Assembly: GCA_029432815.1 (NCBI GenBank)
Contig: JAROBA010000017.1
Coordinates: forward strand, 1 to 64,000
Source: Pontiellaceae bacterium B1224
GTDB lineage: Bacteria > Verrucomicrobiota > Kiritimatiellia > Kiritimatiellales > Pontiellaceae
Length of the DNA stretch: 64,000 nt
Direction of reading: 5' to 3'
The position numbers were made by a program, and so were the translations under genes. Shown one piece after another: positions 1,462-56,916 of this stretch (positions within the stretch are counted from its first letter, which is position 1; every line of letters starts with the position of its first letter). The notes beneath the pieces are model-generated. The model had not been told where the DNA came from. It saw only the letters and a program-made list of their open reading frames with translations, and ran no database searches.

Positions 1462-2088
1462 CTATTCCACCGTAAGCGTTGCGAAGGCGGCACGGTCGTC
1501 GAAAGCACCAAAGCCGATTTTACCGATCGGATAAGTTGCATCGTTCGCGGTCATCAACGGAGTTTCTAAATCGTCTACAAAGACGCTGATCGCTCCGTTT
1601 TCCAGTTGTTGAATCCGAATGGGTGTCCACCCCCTGGAAAGGCGGGCTTCAGGATCTGTTTCCCGATTGATTCGCACCCGACTATCGCCATCGACCCGCA
1701 TAATCACATTATGAACTTTATTATCGGAGTTAGACGAAATATGAGCGTAGTAAAAGTGCGTATCGTCCTGATAGCCGAAGATCAGGCAGATATCGCGATT
1801 AATTACCGAGTCCGGCTCCAGCGTTGCGGCCTCGACGGTGAACTGACCGACAGCTGCGCTCTTGAACAACGCAAACTCTGCAGGACGACGCACGGGCGGG
1901 CGTTGTTCACCGGCGGTGTGAAGGATCAGGCAGGACCGCCTTTCCACCTCACCGGTTTTCCAAAGGTTGGAATTCAACAGGACAAGTTGATCCTGCGCAT
2001 CTGCCAGCTCAAGCGGGGCGGCAACCGCGCCGCCGAGCATCAGCAGGCTTCCAATGATTGGAAGTGTTGCTCTATGCCAGCATGCCAT
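1462..2088 (-). CDS. Secreted concanavalin-like (LamG / 3-keto-disaccharide hydrolase type) domain protein
   Basis: A 208-residue protein with an N-terminal hydrophobic signal (about 7-24, ending VAAP). One beta-sandwich domain follows. The sequence FGYQDDTHFYYAHIS, the later GWTPIRIQ, and the end GKIGFGAFDDRAAFATLTVE are typical of family DUF1080/LamG jelly rolls that bind or cleave glycans. I see no diagnostic catalytic residue, so a binding role is as likely as hydrolysis. It overlaps the end of the aldo/keto reductase gene by 17 bp and is presumably co-transcribed with it. Two copies of the TTCCAANNNTTGGAA palindrome (1958-1972, 2049-2063) lie inside the coding sequence; the second is in the signal-peptide region and is read as LPIIGS. 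Confidence 0.7.
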   Translation of the reverse strand: MACWHRATLPIIGSLLMLGGAVAAPLELADAQDQLVLLNSNLWKTGEVERRSCLILHTAGEQRPPVRRPAEFALFKSAAVGQFTVEAATLEPDSVINRDICLIFGYQDDTHFYYAHISSNSDNKVHNVIMRVDGDSRVRINRETDPEARLSRGWTPIRIQQLENGAISVFVDDLETPLMTANDATYPIGKIGFGAFDDRAAFATLTVE

Positions 2089-3031
2089 CGGTGTACCCCG
2101 GAAGATCCCATGGTTGCGGCAGGCCGCTCGGAATGCTCATGGCAACCATTTTTGAAAAATCGCTGCGCTGTTTTTTATCCAAGGGCTGGAAGTTGGTAGC
2201 CAGCTTCGCATTGGCGTCCACGTGCGCCACCTCACCGGTTCCGATAATCGTCGTGCAAACCCCCGGCAAACTCATTGCATAGCGCATCAGTTCGGTGGGA
2301 TTCTGATCGGAATTACGCACGTGCCGCACGGATTTCATGGCAATCACGCCCATATTCCGTTCAACGGCCATAGGCAGCAATTCATCTTCATAGCGCCCGT
2401 CGGACGGTCGGTTTGCCGGGAATGTGGTGAGCAATGCGTCTGGCTCAAAGGCCGTGATGCATTCCATCAGAATATCCGGCCCACTGTGTCCAGTCACCCC
2501 GAAATAGTTGATCATCCCCTGCTCTTTGGCCTTAACAACGGCTTTAAAAGCGCCTTCTCGAGCTTTGGGGGATGTGTCGCCCTTATTGGGCTGCCAGTTG
2601 TGCATGAGGAATAAATCAAGGTGATCCGTCTGCAGTCGTTTAAGACTCCCTTCCAGCTCTTTCATCAAAGCGTCGTAGGTCTTCTCGCTGCTTTTGGAAA
2701 CCATGAATACCTCGCCTCGGCGCTCTTTCAGTACCGGGCCGATCAGCACTTCACTATCGCCATAGCTGTAGGCGGTATCCCAATAGTTGATCCCTAAATC
2801 GAGCGCCCGGTTCAGGATCTGCGCCGCTCCCTCCGGATTGCCCTCCATTGGTTTGGTAAAAGCACTGCCCAGACCCAGTCCGTAAATTGAAACCTCTGCA
2901 CCGGTTTTTCCCAGAATGCGCCGATCAACCTGCTTTTCCTGCGGTTTCACCTCGGCAGTTGCTGTGCCAGCCAGTCCGGCCAGCCCGCCACCAACCGTTG
3001 TTGCAACAAATCCTCGTCTTGATCCTTTCAT
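2072..3031 (-). CDS. Tat-exported aldo/keto reductase
   Basis: About 319 residues. The N-terminus SRRGFVAT followed by a Gly/Ala-rich hydrophobic stretch ending TATA is a twin-arginine signal, so a folded NADP-bearing enzyme is probably exported. The AKR (beta/alpha)8 barrel shows the Asp/Tyr region WDTAYSYGDSE, the Lys in MVSKSSEKT and the His in FLMHNW of the catalytic tetrad, plus MINYFGVTGHSG. Such Tat-AKRs are common in PVC bacteria, often next to sugar catabolism genes. The substrate is unknown. An ATG six bases further up (3037) sits only one base after GGAGG; the ATG at 3031 has proper spacing and is preferred. It is first in a two-gene unit with the concanavalin-like gene. Confidence 0.85.
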   Translation of the reverse strand: MKGSRRGFVATTVGGGLAGLAGTATAEVKPQEKQVDRRILGKTGAEVSIYGLGLGSAFTKPMEGNPEGAAQILNRALDLGINYWDTAYSYGDSEVLIGPVLKERRGEVFMVSKSSEKTYDALMKELEGSLKRLQTDHLDLFLMHNWQPNKGDTSPKAREGAFKAVVKAKEQGMINYFGVTGHSGPDILMECITAFEPDALLTTFPANRPSDGRYEDELLPMAVERNMGVIAMKSVRHVRNSDQNPTELMRYAMSLPGVCTTIIGTGEVAHVDANAKLATNFQPLDKKQRSDFSKMVAMSIPSGLPQPWDLPGYTDGMLA

Positions 3032-3097
3032 CTGCATACCTCCGTTTGAATGCAGAAATCATACTGTTTAGATCAGATCTCAACAACTTTTAAGGGC

Positions 3098-5084: not shown

Positions 5085-5816
5085 ATGGATACCAACTTCC
5101 AAGGTCTGGAAAAAATCCCAAAGCACGTTGCCCTCATCATGGATGGCAACGGGCGGTGGGCGCAGGAGCGCGGATTATCGCGGATTGAAGGACATAAGGA
5201 AGGGGCGCAGTCAGTTCGCGCCGTACTGCGCGCGGCCGCTCAGGCCGGCGTGGAATATATTACCGTCTACGCCTTCAGCACCGAAAACTGGAAACGCCCC
5301 CCGGCCGAAATCGACGGGCTTATGAAACTGCTCGTTCATTCGCTGAATGAATATGAGCAGGAGCTGCACGACAATCATATCCGCCTGCTGGTGATGGGCC
5401 AGTTTGAGCGCCTGCCTCTGCCCGTGCGGATACGCCTGCAGAAAACCATCGATGCCACAGCGCATTACACCGACCATACGTTTATTATTGCACTGAGTTA
5501 TGGATCCCGCACCGAGATTGCCGATGCGGCGAAGGCGATTGCTGAAAAAGTGAAGTCGGGTGAAATGAAGCTTAAAGAGGTGAATGAACAGGCCATTTCC
5601 AACCACCTCTATCTGCCGGAGATACCCGACCCCGAGCTGATGATCCGCACCAGCGGCGAACTCCGCTTGAGCAATTTTCTGCTGTGGCAGCTCTCCTACG
5701 CCGAGTTTTACATCACCGAAGATTACTGGCCCGACTTTCGCGAAGAACAGTTTTTCCATGCATTGGAAGCTTTCAACGGGCGGGATCGTAGGTATGGTGG
5801 TGTAAATAAAAAATAG
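5085..5816 (+). CDS. uppS: Undecaprenyl diphosphate synthase (cis-prenyltransferase)
   Basis: 243 residues, typical for the family. It extends FPP with isopentenyl diphosphate to C55-PP, the lipid carrier for peptidoglycan, LPS and EPS. The signature MDGNGRWA (19-26) carries the Mg-binding/catalytic Asp20. The C-terminal block IRTSGELRLSNFLLWQ and the acidic YAEFYITEDYWPDF region are conserved. A degenerate copy of the 15-bp palindrome (5097-5111) forms codons 5-9, read FQGLE, just before the conserved domain. There is no clear Shine-Dalgarno, and the ATG follows an AT-rich repeat. cdsA follows after 13 bp. Confidence 0.96.
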   Translation: MDTNFQGLEKIPKHVALIMDGNGRWAQERGLSRIEGHKEGAQSVRAVLRAAAQAGVEYITVYAFSTENWKRPPAEIDGLMKLLVHSLNEYEQELHDNHIRLLVMGQFERLPLPVRIRLQKTIDATAHYTDHTFIIALSYGSRTEIADAAKAIAEKVKSGEMKLKEVNEQAISNHLYLPEIPDPELMIRTSGELRLSNFLLWQLSYAEFYITEDYWPDFREEQFFHALEAFNGRDRRYGGVNKK

Positions 5817-5829
5817 CGAAGCTCTTTAT

Positions 5830-6699
5830 ATGGATAAAAAACGCATTCTAATAGCACTCTGCATCGCGGCGATCCTAATTCCCGCGTTCAGTCTGGTACC
5901 CAGCCGCTGGCCCGTCGGCCTAGTCGGTATGCTTTTGTTCGCGGGTGTCGGCACCTGGGAATTCTACGGACTGCTGAATGCCGGAGGAATCAAGACCTCC
6001 ACCAAATGGGGTATTGGTAGCGGGTTAATATTTGTTACAGCCACCTGGTTTAATGCACTGGATCAACATCTGACCTACGACGGCTTCGGGGTATCCAATA
6101 ATGCCCTCTGGTGTGTGCTGCTGATCGTCATCCTCTCCAACTTTTTCCGTATCCTCGCCTATCCCGATCTGCGCAAAGGATTGGAAAGCTGCATGGGAAC
6201 CATTCTTGGACTGGTCTATGTCCCCCTGCTCTGGAGCTTTGTGGTTCGCCTGTTCCTGCTGGGCGATCTATCCAAACCGGGCTGGGCCGCGTTCTACGTG
6301 ATTCTCTGCATGAAAATGGCCGACTCCGGCGGCTATTTCTTCGGCACGCGCTTCGGCAAAAATAAACTCGCACCAACCATCTCTCCCAAGAAAAGCTGGG
6401 AAGGGCTCGTGGGCGGCATCGTTTTCTGTGTGATTGTAAATATCGCGTGGTGGATTGTGTCCAAAGGCCACATCAACAGCGCCGTTCCCTTCTCCCTTTT
6501 CCATGCGATCATTCTCGGCTTCCTCTTTCCAATCATTGGAACCGTCGGCGATCTGGTGGAATCCATGTTTAAACGCGCGGTGGACGTGAAAGATTCCAAC
6601 ACCATGGTTTATGGACTCGGCGGCATTCTGGATATGGTGGACAGTATTCTTTTCGCCGCCCCCATGCTTTTTATCTATATCGAACTTTTCCTCAAATAA
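5830..6699 (+). CDS. cdsA: Phosphatidate cytidylyltransferase
   Basis: A 289-residue inner-membrane protein with about eight hydrophobic helices. It makes CDP-diacylglycerol from phosphatidate and CTP for all phospholipids. The conserved C-terminal block is present (KDSNTMVYGLGGILDMVDS, about 260-278). The His and Arg of the usual pattern PGHGGxxDR are here Leu and Met, while the two Asp and the Gly pair are kept. The earlier K/S-rich motif SPKKSWEGLVGG is canonical. It sits between uppS and rseP in the common order, with no dxr between. An 18-bp gap to rseP implies one transcript. Confidence 0.95.
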   Translation: MDKKRILIALCIAAILIPAFSLVPSRWPVGLVGMLLFAGVGTWEFYGLLNAGGIKTSTKWGIGSGLIFVTATWFNALDQHLTYDGFGVSNNALWCVLLIVILSNFFRILAYPDLRKGLESCMGTILGLVYVPLLWSFVVRLFLLGDLSKPGWAAFYVILCMKMADSGGYFFGTRFGKNKLAPTISPKKSWEGLVGGIVFCVIVNIAWWIVSKGHINSAVPFSLFHAIILGFLFPIIGTVGDLVESMFKRAVDVKDSNTMVYGLGGILDMVDSILFAAPMLFIYIELFLK

Positions 6700-8136: not shown

Positions 8137-8320
8137 AACTTCTCTCCCGATCTGGAGGGGCGCGGACCTCCGTGCCTTACACACGCAAGTCCATCGTTTC
8201 CCACGCTCCGCGCGGTGAAACGATCGCTACACCTTTCCAACCATTGGAAAACTGTGACGGAATAGCATCCGCGGTGGATTCGATCATAGGCTGACATCCA
8301 AGTTACTGACACTAAAAAAA
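8137..8320. other. Intergenic spacer with dispersed palindrome
   Basis: 184 bp without a gene. Holds a GC-rich phrase with imperfect self-complementarity (8150-8225) and one perfect copy of TTCCAANNNTTGGAA at 8235-8249 (centre CCA). No terminator with a T run was found after rseP. Confidence 0.5.
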
Positions 8321-8820: not shown

Positions 8821-10554
<1,734 letters not shown>

Positions 10555-13003: not shown

Positions 13004-13771
13004 ATGGCTCTGCTTGAAACCCGCTATTACGCCCGCTCCATTAACCAATCGATGGGCCTTAACATTATTCTGCCGGAACATTCCGAAGCCTGGCAGGAGC
13101 CGCCCTCCGTACTCTACCTGCTGCATGGCCTCTCCGGGGATCACACCTCCTGGTGCCGCAGTTCCTCGATCGAGCGCTATGCGCGCGACTATAATCTGGC
13201 GATCATTCTGCCCGATGCGCACAAAAGTTTTTATTGCGACATGAAGCATGGTTCCAACTACTGGAATCTTTTCGCGGAAGAACTTCCCATGCTTGTAAAC
13301 CGCTGGTTCAACCTTTCCAATGACTGGAAAAAAACCTTTATTGCCGGTGCTTCCATGGGCGGCTACGGGGCAATTAAACTGGCATTGGGCTGCCCCGGAC
13401 GTTTTTCACATGCCGCAACCCTCTCCGGTGCCCTCGATATTGCTTCGCACATCCACGACGAATGGGACGACTCCCGGCTTCGGACCTTCGGGGCTGTGTT
13501 CGACTCCCTTGAAAAAGTTCCAGCCTCTGGAAACGATCTGATCCATCAGCTCCAAACATTGGAAACGGTACCCGCAACCGAGTTTTATGTAAGTTGCGGC
13601 ACCGAGGATTATCTCTACGAAGATTCAGTCACCTTCCGAAAAACGGCCGAAAGCAAGGGATTGAACCTCACCTATAAAGAATCGCCCGGTGAGCACGACT
13701 GGAATTACTGGGATGCCGAAATCCAGCAGATCCTCGACTGGCTGCCGATTGAGCGGCTGGAGAAAAAATAG
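13004..13771 (+). CDS. Esterase of the S-formylglutathione hydrolase / tributyrin esterase family
   Basis: 255 residues, an alpha/beta-hydrolase. The oxyanion-hole motif LLHGLSGDHTSW (about 39-50), the nucleophile elbow GASMGG (115-120, Ser117), the acid near CGTEDYLYED (about 203) and the His in PGEHDWNYWD (about 232) complete the triad. It fits the EstA/esterase D family. Small acyl esters or deacetylation of sugars are likely substrates. No Shine-Dalgarno is visible. Three palindrome copies (13315, 13518, 13551) lie inside it, read in three different frames (SNDWK, VPASGN, LQTLE). It ends one base before the convergent CNNM gene. Confidence 0.88.
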   Translation: MALLETRYYARSINQSMGLNIILPEHSEAWQEPPSVLYLLHGLSGDHTSWCRSSSIERYARDYNLAIILPDAHKSFYCDMKHGSNYWNLFAEELPMLVNRWFNLSNDWKKTFIAGASMGGYGAIKLALGCPGRFSHAATLSGALDIASHIHDEWDDSRLRTFGAVFDSLEKVPASGNDLIHQLQTLETVPATEFYVSCGTEDYLYEDSVTFRKTAESKGLNLTYKESPGEHDWNYWDAEIQQILDWLPIERLEKK

Positions 13772-18411: not shown

Positions 18412-19275
18412 TTAGCCGAAACGCTTTTTCACATGACCGATCATCAGGCGGTCAATCAGGTGGGCTGGTACAAAACGGGCCGCCAAATCGCCGGCATACG
18501 CCGGAAGAGTCACTTTATAGCGAACCTTCGGTTTGGAAGATTCCAAGGCATGGAAAATCTTTTTCGCCACGGCTTCCGGCGGCAGGCGGAATCGATCTTC
18601 CGACATTCCGCCATTCCGGCGCTTTTCGAAATACTGCTTATAGGCCGCACCGAATTTTGAATCCCTGACGTTCAGCTTTTCTTCTCCCTGCCCCGCGCAG
18701 TTGGTTGAAAACCGGGTCCGGATCGGGCCCGGTTCCACAAGAGAAACCGAAATATGATCCGGTGAAAGCTCCACGCGCTGGGCATCGCTGATGGCTTCCA
18801 ACGCAAATTTTGAGGCGGAATAAATGCCCATAAACGGGAGCGACAAACGGCCCACCACAGAACTGATGTTCACGATGCGCCCATAACCCTGTTTTTGAAA
18901 AACCGGGATCAGTCGATTCGTCAGTTCCTGCAGGCCGAATACATTCACTTCAAATTGTTGCCGCATGGCATCGCGCGATACATCCTGAATTGCACCCGGC
19001 ATTCCGAAACCGGCATTATTCACCACCGCTCCGAGCTTGCCCTCATTTTTCACCAGCACCCATTCAACCGCCGTTGCAATGGATTGACTGGATGTGACGT
19101 CCAGTTTAACCGCCTCAAACCCGGCCTGCCGCAACGAGTCCAGATCGTCCAGTTTGCGTGCCGTCGGGAAAACGTTCCAACCTTTGGAACGCAAAAGCTC
19201 AGCTGTTGCCAGCCCGATTCCAGAAGAGCACCCCGTAATCAGTACTGATTTATTTCCAACCCGTGGAAAACTCAT
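18412..19275 (-). CDS. Short-chain dehydrogenase/reductase
   Basis: 287 residues, classical SDR. Cofactor motif TGCSSGIG (14-21), VVNNAGFG, and catalytic YSASK (about 155) with upstream NISSVVG. The acid-poor ARKLDDL after beta-2 suggests NADP preference. The C-terminal ~45 residues are basic, as in the DHRS/YqjQ-like group. It overlaps the deacetylase gene by 4 bp and is the last gene of the riboflavin operon. The substrate is unknown. Palindrome copies at 18541, 19175 and 19254 are read in three different frames. Confidence 0.88.
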   Translation of the reverse strand: MSFPRVGNKSVLITGCSSGIGLATAELLRSKGWNVFPTARKLDDLDSLRQAGFEAVKLDVTSSQSIATAVEWVLVKNEGKLGAVVNNAGFGMPGAIQDVSRDAMRQQFEVNVFGLQELTNRLIPVFQKQGYGRIVNISSVVGRLSLPFMGIYSASKFALEAISDAQRVELSPDHISVSLVEPGPIRTRFSTNCAGQGEEKLNVRDSKFGAAYKQYFEKRRNGGMSEDRFRLPPEAVAKKIFHALESSKPKVRYKVTLPAYAGDLAARFVPAHLIDRLMIGHVKKRFG

Positions 19276-28407: not shown

Positions 28408-28577
28408 TAGATTTATTCTCCATTAAAAATTTAAGCGTCCTAATGCACCGACTGTGCCAACGCAAAAAACCCTTATTTTCCAGATATTGGAAGTTTCCAA
28501 TCGCCTGGAACCGCGCCATTCCGCCCACTCACCGGGCCATACTGACACAGTGCACTTTGAAGTATTCCACGGAATCT

Positions 28578-35085: not shown

Positions 35086-35108
35086 TTTATTAACCAAGGA
35101 GACTTCCA

Positions 35109-36560
<1,452 letters not shown>

Positions 36561-36563: not shown

Positions 36564-36611
36564 TTCCAATCATTGGAAAAAAGAAGGGCGGCTTTCGAGC
36601 CGCCCTTTTTG
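36564..36611. terminator. Bidirectional terminator with dispersed palindrome
   Basis: AAGGGCGGCT-TTCG-AGCCGCCCTT (36584-36607) is a perfect 10-bp stem with a tetraloop, with a T run on the plus side and an A run on the other side, so it can stop ahcY (plus) and the convergent CBM-like gene (minus). A perfect TTCCAATCATTGGAA (36564-36578) lies between the ahcY stop and the stem. Confidence 0.9.
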
Positions 36612-40473: not shown

Positions 40474-42165
40474 TCAATCCGTAACCGCGCCTTCTGAAGC
40501 CGGCCCGACCAGCCGGGCATATTTCCCGAGCGCACCGGATTTATGTTTCGGGCGTGGTTGTTTCCAGGCATTGGAACGCCGCTCCAGCTCTACTTTTGAA
40601 ATTTTAAGTTCAATCGAGCGTCTGTTCGCATCGATTGAAATGACATCCCCATTCTTCACCAGAGCCAACGGCCCGCCCACAAAAGCTTCCGGCGTGATAT
40701 GCCCGATCACGAAACCATGGCTTCCGCCGGAAAAACGGCCATCCGTAATCAGCGCAACATCATTGCCCAGCCCGCGCCCCATGATGGCCGAGGTCGGCGA
40801 AAGCATTTCGCGCATGCCCGGTCCTCCCTGCGGACCTTCATATCGGATCACAACCACATGGCCTGCTTTTACGGAACCGTCCAGAATTTTCTTCAGCGCC
40901 TGCTCTTCCGAATTATAGACGATCGCCTTACCTTCAAACTGCATTCCCTGTTTACCCGAAATTTTGGCCACGGCACCATCGGGTGCCAAGTTTCCTTTAA
41001 GCACCACCAGGTGACCCTGCTTTTTCACCGGACGACTGAACGGGCGGATGATGTCCTGCTTTTTCGGATAGGGTTTCACTAACGCCAGATTCTGTTTCAG
41101 TGTCTTCCCGGTCACCGTCATGCAATCACCATCGATCAGGCCCTCTTTCATCAGGCGAACCATCAGCGGAGCAACGCCGCCGATGGCAGCGAGATCAGCC
41201 ATCACATACTTCCCACTGGGTTTTAGGTCCGCCAACACCGGAACCTTTTTTCCAACGGCGGTAAAGTCGGCCAGCTTAAGGCGCACCTTGGCAGACTTTG
41301 CCATCGCCAGCAGGTGGAGCACCGCATTGGTTGACCCTCCCAAAGCCATCACCACCGCAATGGCATTCAGGAATGCAGTGCGCGTCATGATGTCTGAAGG
41401 CTTTATGCCCCGTTCAATCAGATGCAGCACCGCCCGGCCGGCCGCATGTGCTTCTTCTGATTTCTCCCGGGAGGCTGCGACCCGTGATGAACTGTTCGGT
41501 AGGCTCATGCCCATGGCCTCGATCGCCGATGCCATCGTGTTGGCCGTGTACATTCCGCCACAGGAACCTTCGCCCGGGATGGCGGCCCGTTCAATTTGGG
41601 TCAGCTCCTGCGAGGTGATTTCTCCCTTGGCATGCTGCCCCACGGCTTCAAAAACAGATACAATATCGATATCCTTGCCGCAATAGCACCCCGGTTTAAT
41701 ACTGCCACCATACACAAAAACCGACGGACGGTTCAGCCGCGCCAAGGCAATCAGGCACCCCGGCATATTTTTATCGCACCCACCGAAAGCCACCACACCA
41801 TCAAACCCTTCACAGGCCGTGACTGCTTCAATGGAATCGGCGATAATTTCACGGGACACCAACGAATATTTCATGCCCTCAGTTCCCATGGAAATTCCAT
41901 CGGATATAGAAATCGTATTAAACAGAACGGATTTGCCGCCGGCCACGGCAACGCCCTTTTCGGCCTCCGCCGCCAACCGGTTAATATGCATGTTGCAGGG
42001 CGTGACCATATTCCAGGTGGACGCAATACCGACCTGCGGTTTTTTAAAGTCGGCATCGCTGAAACCGACGGCACGTAGCATCGCGCGACTTGGAGCGCGT
42101 TCCACCCCATCAACAACGGTTGAAGAAAAGGGACGTTTATCTTTCCCGAATGTTTTTGCACTCAT
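40474..42165 (-). CDS. ilvD: Dihydroxy-acid dehydratase
   Basis: 563 residues, ILVD/EDD family. Iron-sulfur dehydratase of valine, leucine and isoleucine synthesis. Cys ligands in CDKNMPGC and GSCGGMYTANTM, preceded by TPCNMH. Further hallmarks: GGSTNAVLHLLAMA, GGPGMREMLSPTSAIMGRG and TDGRFSGGSHGFVIGH. No leader peptide or T-box is visible. A palindrome variant at 40562 is read SNAWK near the C-terminus. Confidence 0.98.
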   Translation of the reverse strand: MSAKTFGKDKRPFSSTVVDGVERAPSRAMLRAVGFSDADFKKPQVGIASTWNMVTPCNMHINRLAAEAEKGVAVAGGKSVLFNTISISDGISMGTEGMKYSLVSREIIADSIEAVTACEGFDGVVAFGGCDKNMPGCLIALARLNRPSVFVYGGSIKPGCYCGKDIDIVSVFEAVGQHAKGEITSQELTQIERAAIPGEGSCGGMYTANTMASAIEAMGMSLPNSSSRVAASREKSEEAHAAGRAVLHLIERGIKPSDIMTRTAFLNAIAVVMALGGSTNAVLHLLAMAKSAKVRLKLADFTAVGKKVPVLADLKPSGKYVMADLAAIGGVAPLMVRLMKEGLIDGDCMTVTGKTLKQNLALVKPYPKKQDIIRPFSRPVKKQGHLVVLKGNLAPDGAVAKISGKQGMQFEGKAIVYNSEEQALKKILDGSVKAGHVVVIRYEGPQGGPGMREMLSPTSAIMGRGLGNDVALITDGRFSGGSHGFVIGHITPEAFVGGPLALVKNGDVISIDANRRSIELKISKVELERRSNAWKQPRPKHKSGALGKYARLVGPASEGAVTD

Positions 42166-42530: not shown

Positions 42531-42587
42531 GGTTCCAATGATTGGAAAAAATCCTCCTCCCGGATTTCCAATCATTGGAACCTTTTT
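42531..42587. terminator. Long hairpin made of two inverted palindrome copies
   Basis: GGTTCCAATGATTGGAAA (42531-42548) and TTTCCAATCATTGGAACC (42565-42582) are perfect 18-bp inverted copies around a 16-base loop, followed by TTTTTATA. Each arm contains one dispersed palindrome. It can terminate the micro-protein transcript. The right arm also contains the last codons of the minus-strand deaminase gene (TTC CAA TGA, Phe-Gln-stop). Confidence 0.85.
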
Positions 42588-43925: not shown

Positions 43926-43940
43926 TTCCAACCGTTGGAA
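43926..43940. repeat. Dispersed palindrome upstream of the kinase/nucleotidyltransferase gene
   Basis: Perfect TTCCAANNNTTGGAA (centre CCG), 41 bp before the start codon. Preceded at 43885-43918 by a low-complexity stretch of CAACCA/CAACTAT words. Confidence 0.8.
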
Positions 43941-43980: not shown

Positions 43981-45900
43981 ATGAAGCTTTTTGTACCGGG
44001 AAGAATCTGTCTGTTTGGGGAACACTCCGACTGGGCCGGCGGGTATCGACGAATTAATGCAGATATCGAAAAAGGCTCTGCACTCATCGTCGGAACCAAT
44101 CAGGGTCTTTATGCGGATGTCAAACCCCACCCCGACAAACTGATACTGAAAGCGTGCTTCGAAGACGGACGGCGCAAAGGTCCGTTCGAAATTCCGATGG
44201 AACGCGAAGCATTATTGAAAGAAGCCATGAAGGGCGGCTTCACCAGCTATGCCGCCGGTGTTGCTTATCAAATCCTGACGCACTATCGGGTACGCGGTCT
44301 TGAGATCGATAACTACCACACCGATCTGCCCCTCCAGAAAGGGCTCTCCTCTTCGGCAGCCATCTGTGTGCTGGTCGCCCGCGCCTTTAACCGGCTGTAT
44401 GACCTGAAGATGACTGTGCGCGGTGAAATGGAATATGCCTATCTCGGCGAAATCACCACGCCCTCACGCTGCGGGCGTCTGGATCAGGGATGTGCCTACG
44501 GCAACCGCCCTGTTAAAATGATTTTTGATGGAGACCGGTTGGATGTGGAAGAATTGAATGTTCCCCAACCACTCCACTATGTGATCGTCGATCTGAAAGC
44601 GTTCAAAGACACGAAGGAAATTCTGGCGAAGCTGAACCAGTGCTATCCCTTCGCCGAAGACGATGTGCAGAAAAAAGTGCAGGAATATCTGGGGCCGCTC
44701 AATGCCGAGATTAACAGCCGCGCTTCAGAGGCCATCCGTTTAGGCGATGCAGAGACCGTCGGAAAGCTGATGAGCGAGGCGCAGGCAAAATTTGATGAAC
44801 ATCTGCAACCGGCCTGCCCATCCCAGCTCACCTCGCCGGTACTGCATAAACTGCTTGCTTATGAACCGCTTCAGGAATATGTGCTCGGCGGCAAAGGCGT
44901 CGGCTCGCAGGGCGATGGCACCGCCCAGTTTCTCGTTAAAGACGAGGCCGCCCAAAACAAGGTCATCGAGATCATTGAACGCGACCTGAAAATGCCTTGC
45001 ATGAAACTTGATATTGAGTCGGTAAACCGCCTACGCAAAGCCGTCATTCCGGCGGCCGGCTTCGGCAACCAGCTATTCCCGTCTACCAAAACGCTGAAGA
45101 AAGAAATGTTCCCGATCATCGATCGCGATGGACGAGCCAAGCCCGTAATTATGGCCATTGTTGAGCAGGTGCTGGAGGCCGGGATTGAAGAGGTCGGGAT
45201 TATTATTCAGGAGGCGGACCGCGAACTGTTTGAAGATTTCTTCCACAAACATCTGGCTGTGGAGCATGCGAACAAACTTTCAAAAGAAGATCAGCGCTAT
45301 ATGCAACACATCATGGATATCGGGAACAAGGTGACCCTCCTGATTCAGGAATCGCAGGAAGGATTCGGCCATGCCGTGTACTGCGCTAAAGACTGGGTGG
45401 GCAACGAACCGTTTATCCTGATGCTGGGCGACCACCTGTTTGCATCCGATACCGACACTCCCTGCATCCAGCAGCTGATTGAGCTTTATGAAAAGACAGG
45501 ACGAAGTGTCGTTGGCTTGCGAGAAACACCTGCTGAAAAAGTGAAACAGTTCGGCTGTGCTACGGGTGTTTGGGAGGAAACAAATAAACTATCCATCACG
45601 GAATTTGCTGAAAAGCCATCGGTTGAATACGCCAGGGAACATCTGGAAACGCAAAACGTGAAAGATGACCACGTCCTTACCATCTTCGGGCAATACATTC
45701 TGACCCCGCACATTTTCCAACTGTTGGAAGAAAACATCAGCCGGAAAATGCGTGAAGGCGGCGCATTCCAACTCACCTCCTGTCTGGACCGACTACGCCA
45801 GGAAGAAGGGTTTGTCGGTCTGCGCATCAAAGGACGCCGTTTTGACATCGGCAACCCGGAAGACTACCGCCAGACGATTATTGACTATCAGAATTCGTAG
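43981..45900 (+). CDS. GHMP kinase - UTP-type sugar nucleotidyltransferase fusion
   Basis: 639 residues. The N-terminal GHMP kinase (about 1-345) starts with GRICLFGEHSDWAGGYR and has the ATP loop LPLQKGLSSSAAICV and GGKGVGSQGDGTAQF. The C-terminal half (about 348-639) is a GalU-type nucleotidyltransferase with AVIPAAGFGNQLFPSTKTLKKEMFP split over the loop, MLGDHLF, FAEKP and GRRFDIGNPEDY. Together they could phosphorylate a free sugar at C1 and then charge it to UDP-sugar, like plant salvage enzymes or Fkp in the opposite domain order. The sugar is unknown. AAGGAG before ATG 43981 rules out the earlier ATG at 43954. Confidence 0.88.
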   Translation: MKLFVPGRICLFGEHSDWAGGYRRINADIEKGSALIVGTNQGLYADVKPHPDKLILKACFEDGRRKGPFEIPMEREALLKEAMKGGFTSYAAGVAYQILTHYRVRGLEIDNYHTDLPLQKGLSSSAAICVLVARAFNRLYDLKMTVRGEMEYAYLGEITTPSRCGRLDQGCAYGNRPVKMIFDGDRLDVEELNVPQPLHYVIVDLKAFKDTKEILAKLNQCYPFAEDDVQKKVQEYLGPLNAEINSRASEAIRLGDAETVGKLMSEAQAKFDEHLQPACPSQLTSPVLHKLLAYEPLQEYVLGGKGVGSQGDGTAQFLVKDEAAQNKVIEIIERDLKMPCMKLDIESVNRLRKAVIPAAGFGNQLFPSTKTLKKEMFPIIDRDGRAKPVIMAIVEQVLEAGIEEVGIIIQEADRELFEDFFHKHLAVEHANKLSKEDQRYMQHIMDIGNKVTLLIQESQEGFGHAVYCAKDWVGNEPFILMLGDHLFASDTDTPCIQQLIELYEKTGRSVVGLRETPAEKVKQFGCATGVWEETNKLSITEFAEKPSVEYAREHLETQNVKDDHVLTIFGQYILTPHIFQLLEENISRKMREGGAFQLTSCLDRLRQEEGFVGLRIKGRRFDIGNPEDYRQTIIDYQNS

Positions 45901-50872: not shown

Positions 50873-52513
50873 CTAAAACTTAGATTCTTTTTGTAATCTG
50901 TAAATTCCCCCAAACTCGTCCTCATCAACTATTCCAAACATTGGAAACAGCTCCGTTCCCGTTTCCACCATACGACCATACATGTCCGGGGACCGCACTC
51001 CCATTGATTCCAAGGGTTGGAAAAATGAATTGAAAGCGTATGCATTCCCCCCGTTGTTTCCAAGTTCTTCCTTAATCAGGTCCGCCGATACTTCACTGCT
51101 ATTAATCAAACGGGCCGGGCAGTAATAGTTCAGATAAAAAATAAGTATTGGCTCATAACTTGTCAGAACCAAGTCATCTGCAGTTGAATGCTCAAGTAAC
51201 CAGGCCGACTTCTGAGTATGATAGTCAGAGGATTCAGACATCACCGGGAACAAACCACCAATCAGGTTATGCGAAAAAAGTAACACAATCAGCAACCAAC
51301 TGAATCGGCTCATAGAGCCAAAACTACACCCGTTCATCGTTGTGGCGTTGGCTCTAAGAGGCAATAAAACTCCTGCCAGCAACCAAAACGGAACAAGCGC
51401 CATAATCCACAGCTCGGGACTGCCCGCCTCCGTGCGAATCACCGCAAGGGCGTAAAGCACCAGCCAAACCAGCGAGCAGATAGTCAGTGGTTTGAGGTTT
51501 CGAGCTTTCAGCTCAGGGCCGTCATCTTTGCGCGCCTGCGATCTCCTGCAAAGAGTCACTCCAAACCATAAACACCAAACCAAGATCAGCGATAACGTCG
51601 CAACGCCCGCCCAAGGAATCCATCCTGTCATTTTCGAAGCCATGTAGAATTCTTCATCGAGCATCCGGGAAGGAAAGAGGTTTGAAAGCAGTTCGCGGAA
51701 CCATTCAAACCCAAACAGGAAATTGGCCGAGACCAGATTCTGCCCAAAGGCAATGCCGCCGCGCAACAAGTTCGACAAAGTAACGCCACCCTCTACTGCA
51801 TGATGCTGAGCACCCAGCTCTGAAAAATCCAACCATGGGGAGCAAACCGCATAACCGATCACCACCAGCAGTCCCGTCAGTACTCCATGGAGCAATGCCT
51901 TTTTCCAATCTTTGGATAGCAGATAATACAACGGAATAATCAGCAACAACGGAATCAGGTTCAATAAGTGCACCAGAATTCCCAATGCCGAAACCGCCGC
52001 ACCCCAGCACACGTTACCCCGCAGCACTAAGCACCAAGCACCAAGCACGAACGCACTCGCTAAGATATATGTCTCCGCTTCATTGGCGTACCGCCAGAAA
52101 CCGTAGGAGAAGGCGAGCAGAAGTGTGGTTTGAAGTTTTAGGTTCGGGGTTTGGTGGTCTGGAGAGGCATCGGCCTCGATGCCTTTGGCCGGCGAGGCCG
52201 CCAGCCTTCCAATAAATTGATAAAAAAACAGCAAGCAAACCACCGCCAAAAGCCGGTTAATGAAAATCATGAAGGGAAAGGCATGGCCAGTATAGCCGAT
52301 AGTCTGCGCCGCTCGATACGCACTTCCAAACATTGGAAGTGCCAGCACCCGGTTTACCCCAGTCTGATCTTTAAATGTACCCTGCTCCACCTGCAACGCA
52401 AAATCATACACATCCTCCGCCTCGGAATGATTCTGCGGAGCCGCAATCGAATAGATCACGAACAGAACAACTGCAATGAGCAACGGCATTAATCTGAAAC
52501 TACGAATGGACAC
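50873..52513 (-). CDS. Polytopic membrane protein, GT-C (PMT/ArnT-like) type
   Basis: 546 residues with about eleven hydrophobic helices and an early acidic loop (NHSEAEDVYDFA) as in GT-C glycosyltransferases. The family match is weak and no substrate can be named. The coding sequence has three low-complexity patches: about 114-130 (HQTPNLKLQT), 153-165 from GTGCTTG repeats (LGAWCLVLRG) and 333-343 (PELKARNLKPL). A GTG at 52513 or an ATG at 52492 may be the start; neither has a good ribosome site. Five palindrome copies. It lies downstream of the terminator at 52551-52582, so it has its own promoter. Confidence 0.75.
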   Translation of the reverse strand: MSIRSFRLMPLLIAVVLFVIYSIAAPQNHSEAEDVYDFALQVEQGTFKDQTGVNRVLALPMFGSAYRAAQTIGYTGHAFPFMIFINRLLAVVCLLFFYQFIGRLAASPAKGIEADASPDHQTPNLKLQTTLLLAFSYGFWRYANEAETYILASAFVLGAWCLVLRGNVCWGAAVSALGILVHLLNLIPLLLIIPLYYLLSKDWKKALLHGVLTGLLVVIGYAVCSPWLDFSELGAQHHAVEGGVTLSNLLRGGIAFGQNLVSANFLFGFEWFRELLSNLFPSRMLDEEFYMASKMTGWIPWAGVATLSLILVWCLWFGVTLCRRSQARKDDGPELKARNLKPLTICSLVWLVLYALAVIRTEAGSPELWIMALVPFWLLAGVLLPLRANATTMNGCSFGSMSRFSWLLIVLLFSHNLIGGLFPVMSESSDYHTQKSAWLLEHSTADDLVLTSYEPILIFYLNYYCPARLINSSEVSADLIKEELGNNGGNAYAFNSFFQPLESMGVRSPDMYGRMVETGTELFPMFGIVDEDEFGGIYRLQKESKF

Positions 52514-52638: not shown

Positions 52639-55092
52639 TTAACTATTCATCCGCTTCAGGATATGCTTCGCGCGGATCCATTGCTTTAGGGTTTGGAAAA
52701 CAAAACGTGGATTTCCAATCAGATAGCGCCGCCATAGGCGTTTGGGTTCGGTGCACAATCGAAACAGCCATTCCAGTCCTGATTTCATCATCCAGCGAGG
52801 AGCCTGTCGAACATGGCCCGCATGGAAATTGAAAGCCGCGCCTACGGCTAGAATCGCCGCGCAGTTTAATTTCGGTCGAAATTCTGACACCCAGTAATCC
52901 TGCTTCGGTGTACCCAGTCCGCACCAAACGACATCCGGTTCAGCCTCATTAATTCGTTCAGCCACTTCATCCTTCTCCGCATCTTCCAAAGCTCGGAACG
53001 GCGGCGAATACATGCCTGCAATTTTCAATTTTGGAAATTTCACCAGCAGATTATTTTTTAACTCCGCCAGTACTTCATCGGTCGCTCCATAGAAATAGTG
53101 ACTGTACCCTGTAACTTCACTCAACGCGCATAGGTTCAACATTAGGTCGGGGCCATACACCCGCGTTGCGCCTTGAAATCCAAAGTGCTTTGCCAACCAA
53201 ACCAGCGGCATGCCATCCGTTGTGGCCATTCCCGCATCCATCACAATACGGGCCATGTCGGGACGATCATAACATTGCACAACGGTATCGGCCGTACAGA
53301 TATTCACATAATGCTTTTGCCCTGTATCCACCCAGTTAGCTACCCGATCACGGGCACTTTCCATCGTCATGGCAGACAGCGACACACAGCCGGCAGGAAA
53401 ACGATCATACCCCTCTTCATCTTTGTAGGGTTCTATAGATCGTTCATGACGGAACATCGGAAATTTTTTCAGATGTAGAATCTGAGCAAATACCTTCAAT
53501 ACAAACATCGGATTATCGGGAATATATCGTTTCCAAAGCCGCGGCTGTTTAATGCCGCGATGCAGCCACTGCAGCCCTGCATATTTAATCCAGTCCGGCG
53601 CATCTTTTTCCACCCCGGCATTTACATCAAAAGCGTAGCCCACCGGGCAGATAATCTTACACTTTAGCCGGTCACGAATATGATCCATGAAATAAAGTTG
53701 TTTCGGCGTACTGATTCCAATCCAGAAAACGTCCGTGTTTGAAGCATTCACTTCTTCCACAAGCGCATCCTCTTCTTCAGCGGTCAAAGGCCGGAATGGC
53801 GGACAGCAAATTCCGGAAATCTGAATTTTCGGATGCTTTACCTCAAGCACCTCCTTCAGCTTTTCCACAATACCTGGCGCGGCCCCCCAGAAATAATGAC
53901 GCCAACCTTTGTCTTCGCCATACGCACAGGCATCGCGCAGCAGATCCGGACCATAAACCCGCTCAATCTGACGCTGCCCAAACAACCTGCCCAACCAGAC
54001 CAGCGGCATTCCATCCGGCGTATTTAAAACCGACTCATTCAGAATTCGCTGCAATTTTTGTTTTCGTCTGGATTCGACAATGCCTGCCACCCCCATCGCA
54101 GTGGTCATCGCCGGAAGTTTGGTCCAGAGACCGGACGACAATTTAAATATTTCCGATGTCCAATGTCCAATGTCCGATTTGAGGGTCTGCGACACATCTC
54201 CCATTTCTAAAGAGCCAGTTTCATCTTGGCTCGGATACATATACGCCGAGTTTGCAGTCTGCAGTTTGGAGTTAGAAGATGCTCCCGGCTCCATGCTTCC
54301 AGCTTCATGCTCGATTATTTCCCTAAATAATTCGAGGCAATCGTCCATATTCACAGCATCAATGCCAACGCCCAGAATATTGAATCGTCGATCCGCAAGA
54401 GATTTCTTACGAATCACGTAAAGAAGGTTCATTACAGTAAAAATAAAAATACCGATCGAAACTCCGATTAGACTTTCCGCAAAATCCACAAAAGATACGA
54501 CACGGCTTGGAGCAAGCACCTGAAGTAACTCTGTCTGGAGGGACCATAAAAATCCCACAACATACAGAAGCCCAACCCGACCCCAATACGTTTTTTTCAA
54601 TCCAGGGTCGATGGGAAATAAAAAGCAAACTCCAAGTGCTAATCCAAACAGGCCGAATAATCCAATCTGTCCCGCTCGATGCACATCAAATTCCGACAGA
54701 CTTTCTAGATATTGAATGAGGTGTTCATGCAAACTGAACTCCTTAAACATATTCTTACCGTAGACTGTTTTCCAAGCCGCATCAAAATCATCGGTCACTG
54801 AAAGCGATGCTCGGGCCGGATATGATTCTACCGTGCTCTTGGGGAGTAATGTCCCCGCCAAAATAATCAACGCAACAAAGAGAACTGCCCATCCCCCGAT
54901 TCGGTTAAGTATCTTGAGCTGAAGTATATACCCCAACAACATGATCCCAAATATGATCGATAACCCAACAACCGTGGCTTTCGGCAGCAATAAACCGCCG
55001 AGATGTTGCAGTACATGAACAAAGAGGAATAGCCCGATGCTTCCAAGTATTGGAAACAACAGCCTTGCCCACTTCACCAACCACTCATGCAT
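52639..55092 (-). CDS. VanZ-like membrane domain fused to two WecG/TagA/CpsF glycosyltransferase domains
   Basis: About 817 residues. N-terminal VanZ-like part with six helices (1-235). Then two GT26 domains. Domain 1 (about 240-540) has NTPDGMPLVWLGR and FWIGISTPKQL. Domain 2 (about 560-800) has NICTADTVV, ATTDGMPLVWLAK and WCGLGTPKQDYW. The Asp of each (T/P)DG motif is the proposed catalytic base, so both look competent. Domain 1 carries a ~55-residue low-complexity insertion (about 265-320) just before its TTAMGVAG strand. GT26 enzymes add ManNAc(A) or glucose to lipid-linked sugar. The ATG at 55092 overlaps the previous gene by 8 bp; a TTG lies six codons upstream. Confidence 0.9.
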   Translation of the reverse strand: MHEWLVKWARLLFPILGSIGLFLFVHVLQHLGGLLLPKATVVGLSIIFGIMLLGYILQLKILNRIGGWAVLFVALIILAGTLLPKSTVESYPARASLSVTDDFDAAWKTVYGKNMFKEFSLHEHLIQYLESLSEFDVHRAGQIGLFGLFGLALGVCFLFPIDPGLKKTYWGRVGLLYVVGFLWSLQTELLQVLAPSRVVSFVDFAESLIGVSIGIFIFTVMNLLYVIRKKSLADRRFNILGVGIDAVNMDDCLELFREIIEHEAGSMEPGASSNSKLQTANSAYMYPSQDETGSLEMGDVSQTLKSDIGHWTSEIFKLSSGLWTKLPAMTTAMGVAGIVESRRKQKLQRILNESVLNTPDGMPLVWLGRLFGQRQIERVYGPDLLRDACAYGEDKGWRHYFWGAAPGIVEKLKEVLEVKHPKIQISGICCPPFRPLTAEEEDALVEEVNASNTDVFWIGISTPKQLYFMDHIRDRLKCKIICPVGYAFDVNAGVEKDAPDWIKYAGLQWLHRGIKQPRLWKRYIPDNPMFVLKVFAQILHLKKFPMFRHERSIEPYKDEEGYDRFPAGCVSLSAMTMESARDRVANWVDTGQKHYVNICTADTVVQCYDRPDMARIVMDAGMATTDGMPLVWLAKHFGFQGATRVYGPDLMLNLCALSEVTGYSHYFYGATDEVLAELKNNLLVKFPKLKIAGMYSPPFRALEDAEKDEVAERINEAEPDVVWCGLGTPKQDYWVSEFRPKLNCAAILAVGAAFNFHAGHVRQAPRWMMKSGLEWLFRLCTEPKRLWRRYLIGNPRFVFQTLKQWIRAKHILKRMNS

Positions 55093-55720
55093 CTTTATCA
55101 CCTGTAACAATCAAACTCTTGGTCATTCCCAGAAACCGTTCACAAATAAGGTAAGAGCCGGGAAACAACTCTTTCATATCTGCTTTGGTCAGCAGAATGG
55201 CCTGAGCGTCAGCCACCGCCCCCTCGGGCTTTCCCCGCAGTTTCTGAAACGAAAACGGCCAGTGCCGGGCAACAAACAGCTTTCCAGCCTTTGGAAAAAA
55301 CTGCACGAAGGGAAAACAAAGATGCAGTTCTATTGGAAAATACCGGTTCGGCGTTTGAATCCAGTATGCATTTCCCACACGTTGAATTTCTGCCGCCATG
55401 CACCTCTGATCCTCGCGACTCAATAAATGCTCTATGACACTGTTCGAAAAAACCAGGTCAAATTCGCCATCGGAAAACATATGCATATCACAGGCGCTGC
55501 CTTGCACATAATTCAACTGGCCTGGCTTCGGCGGATTCAGGTTAACTGTCGTCACTTCAGCGTTCACCCCAAACGATTTCCAGTTCCAATCCCCGGAACC
55601 GCCGACATCGAGGATACGCGTCGTTGCATTAAGTTTAAAATAACTGAGAAAACGTTGCATGCGCTTTCGACGCATTCGGGCGCTGAACTTCAGCATCTGA
55701 TTCAGCATCATCTGTTTCAT
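55085..55720 (-). CDS. Class I SAM-dependent methyltransferase
   Basis: 211 residues. Motif I ILDVGGSGDWNWKSFG, motif II-like AEVTTVNLNPP, and DLVFSNSVIEHLLSREDQ as motif IV. Type 11-like fold, probably methylating a sugar or lipid-linked glycan. Overlaps the GT4 gene by 4 bp and the VanZ-WecG gene by 8 bp. N-terminus is basic and Met-rich (MKQMMLNQMLKFSARMRRKR). Confidence 0.88.
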   Translation of the reverse strand: MKQMMLNQMLKFSARMRRKRMQRFLSYFKLNATTRILDVGGSGDWNWKSFGVNAEVTTVNLNPPKPGQLNYVQGSACDMHMFSDGEFDLVFSNSVIEHLLSREDQRCMAAEIQRVGNAYWIQTPNRYFPIELHLCFPFVQFFPKAGKLFVARHWPFSFQKLRGKPEGAVADAQAILLTKADMKELFPGSYLICERFLGMTKSLIVTGDKDA

Positions 55721-56916
55721 ACCAAACGCCTTCGCTCAATCACAGTTCCATAAATCGCTTCAAGTTGCCGCGCATTTACGCTTGGCGCAAATTCATTATC
55801 AAACTTCAACCGGGCATTTGCCCGCATTTCATTTGCCATTTTTGAATTTGCCACAATCTGCATAACGGCCACGGCAAGGGCCGCGGCATCACCAGGCATA
55901 AATTTAAATCCGCTTCTTCCGTCATCCACCAATTCAACCGCTCCACCGATATTCGCCGCAATAACCGGCGTGCCTTTGGCATACGATTCCGCAATCGTAC
56001 GACTGCAAGGTTCAAAACGTACCGAAGGCACGATGGTTGCAGCAGCCCGTCCGATGAGTTCATACGTTTCAGAAAGCAACAGTCGTCCCATCATACGAAC
56101 ATGGCCCGTGAGCCTTGAGTGCTCTATGGTATTTGCAATGTTTTGTTCCAGCGGACCGTCACCGATAATAACCAGCCCCGGAACCATGTCGTTTTCCGCA
56201 GTGAGTTTTTTCCAGGCTTCCAACAAAACCGGAAGGCCCTTGTCCTCTGACAGACGTCCGGCCACTACAAAAAAACCGCCTTCCCCGTTTCCCGGTTCAG
56301 GTATAGGAGAAACCGTATTGTGCTTCACGAAAATCCGATCCGGTTTCCAGCCATTGGAAACATATTTATCTTTCACACAGCTCGATACGGCAACATACGC
56401 ATCCACCCGGTTTTTCCATGTTCCACGTATCCGGTGAATCTCCTGCATGGCACTCACCGTGAGAGATGCCGGCAGGCTGCCTCGATAACATCGATGTCGA
56501 ATCCCCGCCCAGGAATGTTTTCCATTCGAACAAGCCTCGCAGATTCCCCCATCACGGAACAAACCCGTCTGCATGCAGAATAAGCGATAGTTACGAAGCG
56601 CCTGAACCACCGGTACGCCGGCATCCCGGGCGGCATCATAAACAGACGGAGAAAGCACCGGGAAAAAATTCTGCACATGCAGAATATCGTAAGCCTTTTT
56701 CTGCAAAAGCTCCCGTACGGTCCGATAACTTTTCCGCGACCAGATCGTATTCACCGCCAGCTGCAGCGCATTCTGCTGCCCCAATTCTTCCACATTATCG
56801 ACAAAAAACGTATCTACCTCATGCCCCAGAGCCCGCAGTGCCTCCACCTCTGCTGCAAAGGAAACCCCCTCACCACCACGGTGCCGGTAATAGTTGTGAA
56901 GCATTAGAACGTTCAT
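55717..56916 (-). CDS. Glycosyltransferase family 4
   Basis: 399 residues, GT-B. Starts MNVLMLHNYYRHRGGEGVSF. A Cys-rich insert (CMQTGLFRDGGICEACSNGK, and HRC) between the domains is typical of one GT4 subgroup and may bind a metal. C-terminal donor site VVAGRLSEDKGLPVLLEA, EPCSRTIAESYAKGTPVIA with the EX7E glutamates. Retaining transferase for EPS side chains. Two palindrome-like copies (56344 and a degenerate one) are the last ones toward the right end of the window. Confidence 0.93.
   Translation of the reverse strand: MNVLMLHNYYRHRGGEGVSFAAEVEALRALGHEVDTFFVDNVEELGQQNALQLAVNTIWSRKSYRTVRELLQKKAYDILHVQNFFPVLSPSVYDAARDAGVPVVQALRNYRLFCMQTGLFRDGGICEACSNGKHSWAGIRHRCYRGSLPASLTVSAMQEIHRIRGTWKNRVDAYVAVSSCVKDKYVSNGWKPDRIFVKHNTVSPIPEPGNGEGGFFVVAGRLSEDKGLPVLLEAWKKLTAENDMVPGLVIIGDGPLEQNIANTIEHSRLTGHVRMMGRLLLSETYELIGRAAATIVPSVRFEPCSRTIAESYAKGTPVIAANIGGAVELVDDGRSGFKFMPGDAAALAVAVMQIVANSKMANEMRANARLKFDNEFAPSVNARQLEAIYGTVIERRRLV

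What the first reader, a model, noticed from the sequence alone, without database searches (positions are those of the whole stretch)
1958..56358. A highly iterated palindrome, TTCCAANNNTTGGAA, spread through genes, gaps and RNA elements
Twelve fixed bases should occur about 0.004 times in 64 kb, but 20 perfect and about 20 one-mismatch copies are present, roughly one per 1.5 kb. Inside genes it is read in all three frames: FQxLE (uppS, thiC, ribD, ribH, GT genes), SNxWK or SKxWK (esterase, ilvD, glycosidase) and (L)PxxG (clpB, dapL, SDR). Selection or spread therefore acts on the DNA and not on a protein motif. This parallels HIP1 of cyanobacteria but with a different core and a free 3-bp centre. 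It could be a site for a chromosome-structuring protein, a methylase/repair target, an uptake signal or a mobile palindrome. I know of no description for this lineage.
Basis: partly seen in the sequence, partly recalled or inferred. Interest (0 to 1): 0.93.

Follow-up and report, generated by a model that had tools for sequence, protein, structure and literature searches.

The report
Genome-wide 15-base DNA landmark palindrome
In some members of one bacterial class a 15-base two-fold-symmetric DNA word occurs hundreds to thousands of times across the chromosome, built by point mutation; in the densest genome it comes in pairs three helix turns apart about every 3,000 bases, as if an unidentified DNA-binding protein needed a landing mark at intervals.

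Summary
The window holds 21 perfect TTCCAANNNTTGGAA (none in shuffles), its genome 1,177 (reversed control 0). The lineage is, by inference, class Kiritimatiellia, probably Pontiella. In a phylum draw all 256 genomes outside the class have 5 or fewer copies; inside, counts are patchy (0 to 1,339). The centre is not free: 176 of 180 sites have C or G in the middle. Orthologues differ at sites by substitution (0 of 132 alignments with other genomes has an indel), including changes towards F-Q-x-L-E. In the densest genome counted, G117 (3,044 copies; kinship not told), 84 of 93 close pairs are exactly 32 bp apart, 196 of 217 sites lie between genes, and elements repel each other: median spacing 3.1 kb, CV 0.60, below all 2,000 randomisations. 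The window's own genome shows neither strict phasing nor even spacing. Strand symmetry argues against an RNA hairpin. Best reading: a landmark bound by an unidentified dimeric protein, probably architectural. A DNA-uptake signal is a serious rival; a HIP1-like methylation/repair mark is weaker. LysR- and Fur-family binders fail (absent from motif-rich, nearly complete genomes). Binder and function remain unproven.

The parts
1958..1972 (.). perfect site, in CDS 1462-2040(-)
2049..2063 (.). perfect site, 31-bp gap between two genes
6527..6541 (.). perfect site, in CTP_transf_1-family gene 5830-6699(+)
8235..8249 (.). perfect site, intergenic by the crude gene caller, 98 bp after a stop codon
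10586..10600 (.). perfect site, intergenic, 130 bp upstream of the thiC gene call
19175..19189 (.). perfect site, in SDR gene 18412-19194(-)
20681..20695 (.). perfect site, ribD, frame F-Q-S-L-E
20734..20748 (.). perfect site, ribD, frame L-P-N-F-G-K
20943..20957 (.). perfect site, ribD, frame S-K-V-W-N
24943..24957 (.). perfect site inside the variable loop region of the FMN riboswitch 24884-25012(-)
26883..26897 (.). perfect site, in clpB 25831-28407(-)
36564..36578 (.). perfect site, 3 bp after a stop codon, convergent gap
38503..38517 (.). perfect site, in CDS 37263-39566(-)
42533..42547 (.). perfect site, 24 bp after a stop codon; pairs with 42566 at 33 bp
42566..42580 (.). perfect site, at the 3' end of amidohydrolase gene 42572-43819(-)
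43926..43940 (.). perfect site, divergent gap
45715..45729 (.). perfect site, in NTP_transferase gene 43981-45900(+); centre T
50932..50946 (.). perfect site, in CDS 50873-52489(-)
51008..51022 (.). perfect site, in CDS 50873-52489(-)
52324..52338 (.). perfect site, in CDS 50873-52489(-)
55041..55055 (.). perfect site, 29 bp after a stop codon; centre T
5097..5111 (.). variant site (one mismatch: C right after the spacer)
10144..10158 (.). variant site in thiC (C right after the spacer)
13252..13266 (.). variant site in esterase gene
13315..13329 (.). variant site in esterase gene
13518..13532 (.). symmetric double variant TTCCAG...CTGGAA in esterase gene
23434..23448 (.). variant site (TTCCAG)
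28478..28492 (.). variant site (TTCCAG), divergent gap
30598..30612 (.). variant site (TTCCAG)
35104..35118 (.). variant site (CTGGAA), at a gene start
39250..39264 (.). variant site (TTCCAG)
39524..39538 (.). variant site (CTGGAA)
40562..40576 (.). variant site (TTCCAG)
55282..55296 (.). variant site (TTCCAG)
56345..56359 (.). variant site (TTCCAG)

Best explanation
A chromosome-wide DNA landmark of the class Kiritimatiellia. Each 15-bp dyad (TTCCAR-N-S-N-YTGGAA, with A/T-rich flanks in several lineages) is the double-stranded site of a dimeric DNA-binding protein; in array-bearing lineages two or more dimers sit on the same face of the helix, 21-22 or 31-33 bp apart. Copies are made by point substitution and kept by selection (or drive) that acts per length of DNA: in the densest genome sampled one element per about 3 kb is enough, and it goes where it costs least, between genes, or inside a gene when no other element is near. 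Most likely role: anchoring sites for an architectural (nucleoid) protein. Shown: dsDNA-level signal, symmetry, phasing (several lineages), differences between orthologues by substitution only, class restriction within the phylum draw, even spacing in one genome. Inferred: direction of change, that a protein binds, its identity, and the architectural role.
For: Nearly invariant TCC/GGA core, A-to-G tolerated next to the spacer, S centre. Close-pair spacing: 84 of 93 at 32 bp in G117; arrays elsewhere of up to six perfect sites stepping 31/32 or 22 bp with non-conserved spacers. No strand asymmetry: in genes 41 changes that would leave G-U against 40 that would leave A-C. 0 of 132 alignments with other genomes has an indel. 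G117: 196 of 217 perfect sites intergenic by the caller; 100 of 166 gaps hold exactly one element, 2 hold more; neighbouring gaps within 2.5 kb both occupied in 18 of 100 against 37.7 expected; spacing CV 0.60 against mean 0.81 (minimum 0.64) in 2,000 placements; 9 coding elements lie a median 2.8 kb from the next element against 1.0 kb for random coding points.
Against: No binding protein was identified. HU (116 of 117 genomes) and Fis-like HTH_8 (116 of 117) are nearly universal and so carry no information. The window's own genome shows no even spacing (CV 0.96), its close pairs are loose (28, 31, 22 bp), and most of its sites are in genes. G117 carries most of the spacing evidence and its kinship is not told. 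Kb-scale spacing, post-stop position and substitution origin would suit an uptake sequence as well (inference). Same-genus genomes at least 90% complete live with 3 to 6 sites (G003, G018, G014), so the function is dispensable or replaceable.
Confidence: 0.43

Rival explanations
1. A DNA uptake signal: natural transformation takes up fragments that carry the dyad, and recombination of such fragments multiplies and maintains it (molecular drive or selection for sex).
For: Neisserial DUS (PMC2397512: passages seen, section 7 read): about 2,000 copies, majority intergenic, may sit just after stop codons, mean spacing matching conversion-fragment length; similar features here. ComEC present in 112 of 117 relatives; of the 5 without it, 4 have 0 or 1 sites (three of these are 63-87% complete) and the fifth (39 sites) is 59% complete. 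Pairs near foreign-looking genes in motif-poor genomes, judged by eye.
Against: The neisserial DUS is an oriented word and not a dyad, and a single copy is enough; helically phased pairs and arrays are then not expected. ComEC is also present in motif-free genomes, so it does not predict the motif. No alternative motif stood out in 57 kb of motif-poor G018.
Confidence: 0.3
2. HIP1-like mark: a solitary methyltransferase recognises an inner part (for example CCAN5TGG) and methyl-directed repair or a similar bias creates and keeps the outer bases.
For: HIP1 and alternate HIPs are patchy, swap between relatives and track methyltransferases (PMC4390886, abstract and part 1 of its Discussion read). 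Even kb-scale spacing would fit repair marks (inference).
Against: CCAN5TGG outside the full T...A context is not enriched: 155 of 615 copies, with 179 expected in all. Twelve fixed bases, an S centre and helical phasing are not methyltransferase-like. Spacing in the window's genome is random. Methyltransferase genes were not profiled.
Confidence: 0.1
3. Expanded regulon of an ordinary transcription factor (LysR T-N11-A box, Fur 7-1-7 box, NtrC-like enhancer pairs).
For: Dyad size, T-N11-A fit, AAT-S-ATT centre in G117, pair spacing like known tandem operators (recalled for OxyR, Fur, Fis and NtrC).
Against: LysR HTH absent from 12 of 35 and Fur from 9 of 35 motif-rich genomes that are at least 90% complete, including G048 (1,339 sites) and G076 (853), which lack both. 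16 of 18 convergent gaps, which need no promoter, hold a site in G117. HTH_8 is nearly universal and not excluded. Other factor families were not profiled.
Confidence: 0.07
4. A transcription roadblock or boundary element, one per transcription-unit boundary, in genomes poor in intrinsic terminators.
For: G117: median 26 bp after the stop in tandem gaps; at most 1 element per gap in 164 of 166 gaps; terminator-like hairpins in only 7 of 116 tandem gaps.
Against: 19 of 32 divergent gaps hold a site, and occupancy of neighbouring gaps is anti-correlated, so the rule looks per length of DNA and not per boundary.
Confidence: 0.05
5. An RNA or single-strand hairpin.
For: The palindrome could pair. 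Letters flanking the site are more complementary than shuffled in the own genome (first position 73 against 58.9, sd 5.7; second 64 against 52.2, sd 5.8) and in the pooled set L016-L130 (239 against 215.2, sd 6.0; 178 against 149.4, sd 8.6); the two outer spacer letters too in G117 (195 against 190.3, sd 1.3) and the pooled set (220 against 140.9, sd 8.9).
Against: Two narrower sets show no excess at the first flank position (G117 92 against 104.8; f17 9 against 16.0) and the own genome none at the spacer letters (51 against 57.6), so mixed composition may explain the rest; G-U tolerated no more than A-C (41 against 40); pair spacer not self-complementary.
Confidence: 0.03

Closest known systems
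HIP1 and alternate HIPs of cyanobacteria (GCGATCGC and others)
   Same: Genome-wide iterated palindrome, patchy across relatives, function unproven (PMC4390886, abstract and part 1 of the Discussion read).
   Different: 15-bp gapped dyad with S centre, no enrichment of the inner CCAN5TGG by itself, helical pairs, largely intergenic in the densest genome, different phylum.
DNA uptake sequences (DUS/USS) of Neisseriaceae and Pasteurellaceae
   Same: Hundreds to thousands of copies, intergenic excess, post-stop position, kb-scale mean spacing (PMC2397512, passages and section 7).
   Different: Dyad instead of an oriented word; phased pairs and arrays; no uptake evidence.
Nucleoid-protein or enhancer sites read on one helix face (Fis, tandem NtrC sites)
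   Same: Dyads of this size, sites two or three turns apart on one face (Fis and NtrC geometry recalled; PMC7408454 passages mention face-of-the-helix dependence).
   Different: Far stricter consensus and far more copies; protein unknown.
REP/BIME intergenic elements
   Same: Located between genes, often after stops (recalled).
   Different: Not copied sequences: spacers and flanks differ and orthologues differ at sites by substitution.

Membership tests
HIP (highly iterated palindrome) | short palindrome far above shuffle expectation genome-wide | tested here: met
   1,177 against 0 for the reversed control; coding 115 against 4.2
HIP (highly iterated palindrome) | methyltransferase recognising part of the motif in the genome | not tested
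   no methyltransferase profile run; inner CCAN5TGG alone not enriched
HIP (highly iterated palindrome) | short GC-rich word (at least 75% GC for most HIPs in PMC4390886) | tested here: not met
   15-bp gapped dyad, 4 of 12 fixed bases G or C
DNA uptake sequence | hundreds to thousands of copies with intergenic excess | tested here: met
DNA uptake sequence | competence gene present | tested here: met
   ComEC in 112 of 117, but also in motif-free genomes
DNA uptake sequence | raises uptake or transformation | not testable with these tools
   needs experiment
DNA uptake sequence | oriented, non-palindromic word | tested here: not met
   symmetric dyad; the neisserial word is given in PMC2397512, the generality is recalled
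LysR-type (LTTR) box | LTTR protein in every motif-rich genome | tested here: not met
   absent from 12 of 35 motif-rich genomes at least 90% complete
Fur-family box | Fur protein in every motif-rich genome | tested here: not met
   absent from 9 of 35
REP/BIME or other mobile repeat | copies arise by insertion of a repeated sequence | tested here: not met
   0 of 132 alignments with other genomes has an indel (genes only); non-conserved spacers
Nucleoid-protein site | bound by an abundant architectural protein | not testable with these tools
   binder unknown; HU and HTH_8 nearly universal, uninformative
Nucleoid-protein site | same-face helical phasing of neighbouring sites | tested here: met
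   84 of 93 pairs at 32 bp in G117; arrays; own genome loose

The most novel reading that the evidence does not exclude
Kiritimatiellia carry a chromosome-spacing system of a kind I know nowhere else: an unidentified dimeric protein binds phased dyad pairs that selection lays out de novo at about 3-kb intervals, preferring gene gaps, so that the chromosome carries regularly spaced, sequence-coded anchor points, a bacterial counterpart of positioned chromatin landmarks.
Probability: 0.33. Interest if true: 0.95.

Novelty: new variant of a known kind. Interest (0 to 1): 0.88.

Why it matters
Whichever of the readings holds, a 12-base word kept in more than a thousand copies, and found where related proteins differ in sequence (F-Q-x-L-E at three places in aroB of the own genome), means a selection or drive that acts on most of a genome. 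An architectural reading would give a directly readable map of chromosome anchor points with natural near-knock-outs (almost motif-free relatives in the same genus). An uptake reading would be a symmetric uptake signal in an anaerobic lineage. Cultured Pontiella strains exist (PMC7356697, passages), so both are testable.

Tried and rejected
LysR and Fur binders were proposed from site shape (T-N11-A; AAT-N-ATT, recalled) and rejected by gene profile. HU, HTH_8 and ComEC profiles were uninformative because the families are nearly universal. A one-per-gene-boundary (roadblock) model was favoured for a while and dropped when neighbouring gaps proved anti-correlated. Sites in motif-poor genomes were searched for a neighbouring regulator gene; none recurred by eye, several pairs lie by restriction-modification-like or foreign-looking genes (no domain search run). 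Arrays in family f17 likewise showed no shared neighbour by eye. The longest-ORF caller overcalls 'in gene' and was replaced by a scored caller, still crude. No alternative over-represented dyad was seen in 57 kb of motif-poor G018; G054 and G003 samples were chosen around sites and so say little. 'Prevotellaceae' RUG11506 (G126) was set aside: only 11 sites, in 22-bp-spaced repeats mixed with other palindromes. In the orthologue test the fragmentary matches (ribD of G006 and G026, aroB of G020) and weak second matches were dropped; a third gene, an NtrC-like regulator, holds no site. Literature: searches (open-licence PMC only; listings seen) showed no paper that describes this motif. Seen: PMC4390886 (abstract and part 1 of the Discussion), PMC2397512 (passages and section 7), PMC7356697 and PMC7408454 (passages).


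Full report
Observation. The window has 21 perfect TTCCAANNNTTGGAA and 28 one-mismatch copies; shuffles give none and 0.32. A scan of all gapped palindromes of the window puts this dyad and its inner forms at the top. The whole genome has 1,177 copies, the reversed control 0.

Lineage. Equal counts and sizes tie several of them to unnamed relatives of the own genome (for example G124 to G104 and G128 to G116, both labelled Kiritimatiellae), from which I infer the class Kiritimatiellia. In a draw of 387 genomes of the phylum, all 256 outside the class have 5 or fewer copies, and 36 of the 131 inside have at least 14, up to 1,339 (my counts of the rows). Among 117 relatives (the own genome included) 59 have at least 14 copies, 57 at most 7 and one has 13. 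Within the genus counts run from 0 to 1,177; the zeros are incomplete, diverged genomes, but G003, G018 and G014 (94-95% complete) have 3, 4 and 6. They have 245 and 376 copies.

Anatomy. In 649 kb of the own genome there are 180 perfect and 213 one-mismatch copies; 116 of the 213 are A-to-G at the base next to the spacer (or its mirror), while T-C-C/G-G-A hardly varies (8 of 213). The middle base is C or G in 176 of 180. T-CCAN5TGG-A accounts for 460 of 615 CCAN5TGG; the remaining 155 show no excess (179 expected in all). In G117 the site tends towards AAATTTCCAATSATTGGAAATTT and in family f17 to A-tracts one base away on both sides.

Phasing. In G117 (the genome of contigs CAIVKH, 3,044 copies in 6.7 Mb, kinship not told) 84 of 93 close pairs are exactly 32 bp apart, 8 are 33 and 1 is 31. 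Elsewhere arrays of up to six perfect sites, more if two mismatches are allowed, step by 31/32 or 22 bp with unrelated spacers. The loci were chosen by a pair pattern that allows any distance from 15 to 45 bp; within that range 31 and 32 dominate (157 of 189 adjacent distances of 20-44 bp, pooled over all sequence held at that time, with 18 at 21-22). Spacers in G117 are not self-complementary and paired centres not reliably complementary: 57 of 93. The own genome shows only loose clustering: 124 pairs within 300 bp against 71 expected, most often 28, 31 and 22 bp apart.

DNA and not RNA. Relative to the gene strand, the change that would leave a G-U pair and the one that would leave A-C are equally common in genes (41 and 40) and in tandem gaps (7 and 6). 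Flank complementarity shows no excess at the first position in G117 and f17 but is above shuffles in the own genome and in the pooled set, and the outer spacer letters are too in G117 and the pooled set. Mixed composition may cause this; I report it as a result against a clean exclusion.

Origin. Orthologues of ribD and aroB from 22 other same-genus genomes each were aligned at the own genome's six sites: none of 132 alignments has an indel (138 with the own genome). The alignments do not polarise gain and loss. Mismatch number at these sites falls with the other genome's motif density (Spearman -0.63, n = 132, confounded by relatedness). At equal divergence G027 (76 per Mb, 80% identity in ribD) has 4, 0, 1 mismatches and G003 (1 per Mb, 78%) has 5, 4, 4. 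Against the trend, the close and dense G008 (136 per Mb, 89%) has 3, 1, 6 in ribD. The differences include amino-acid replacements to and from F-Q-x-L-E.

Placement. Own genome: 0.21 perfect sites per kb of genes against 0.74 per kb outside; with the second caller 0.18 against 0.64-1.35 by gap type, densest in the first 20 bp after stops. G117: 21 of 217 perfect sites coding (0.06 per kb), 2.8-5.3 per kb in gaps; elements start a median 26 bp after the stop in tandem gaps. Of 166 gaps of at least 60 bp, 100 hold exactly one element, 64 none, one holds 2 and one 6; above 100 bp, length hardly matters. A reason appears: neighbouring gaps within 2.5 kb are both occupied in 18 of 100 cases against 37.7 expected, and element spacing has CV 0.60 (n = 115, median 3.1 kb). 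No one of 2,000 random placements into gaps was as even (mean CV 0.81, minimum 0.64). The 9 elements inside genes sit far from others (median 2.8 against 1.0 kb). In the listed part of G122 contig C5, 1 of 27 gaps is under 1 kb (23% expected), but one long gap makes its CV 0.91. The own genome shows no such rule (CV 0.96). Even spacing is therefore shown for one genome, hinted for a second and absent in the window's own.

Who binds. LysR and Fur families fail the profile: 12 and 9 of the 35 motif-rich genomes that are at least 90% complete lack them, and G048 (1,339 sites) and G076 (853) lack both. HU, HTH_8 and ComEC are nearly universal. The protein, if there is one, was not found.

Judgement. 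A symmetric DNA mark, same-face in array-bearing lineages and kept by selection or drive, is what the data show. I favour an architectural protein (0.43) over an uptake signal (0.30); phasing and arrays favour the first, while position, spacing and patchiness suit both. A methylation/repair mark, an ordinary regulon, a terminator and a hairpin are less likely. As a kind it belongs with the highly iterated motifs (HIP, DUS), but it matches the defining features of neither fully.

Noticed in passing
window 24884-25012 (-): FMN riboswitch whose variable loop region contains a perfect copy of the dyad (24943-24957): the mark lies inside a structured RNA without touching its conserved parts.
   Followed up: partly
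own genome, tandem intergenic sites: The middle base is C 34 times and G 15 times in transcript sense; G117 shows 68 and 60. Unexplained.
   Followed up: no
L209, L210, L211, L212 (G054, G098, G056, G050): Motif-poor genomes hold a few 31/32-bp pairs, some beside restriction-modification-like or foreign-looking genes (judged by eye), as if acquired from motif-rich relatives.
   Followed up: partly
L213-L220 (G126, RUG11506, labelled Prevotellaceae): Sites with 22-bp spacing together with other over-represented palindromes (GTTCCA...TGGAAC), looking like a short tandem repeat family unrelated to this system.
   Followed up: no
G053:C1:1409676-1410500 (-): The ComEC match of this relative is read through three in-frame TAG codons; possible recoding of TAG or a pseudogene.
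   Followed up: no
G117 sample (L171-L190): Terminator-like hairpins follow the stop codon in only 7 of 116 tandem gaps.
   Followed up: no
L223-L225 (G018): The 9-mer TTGCCCTTG and its complement occur 10 times in 57 kb against 1.3 expected; cause unknown.
   Followed up: no
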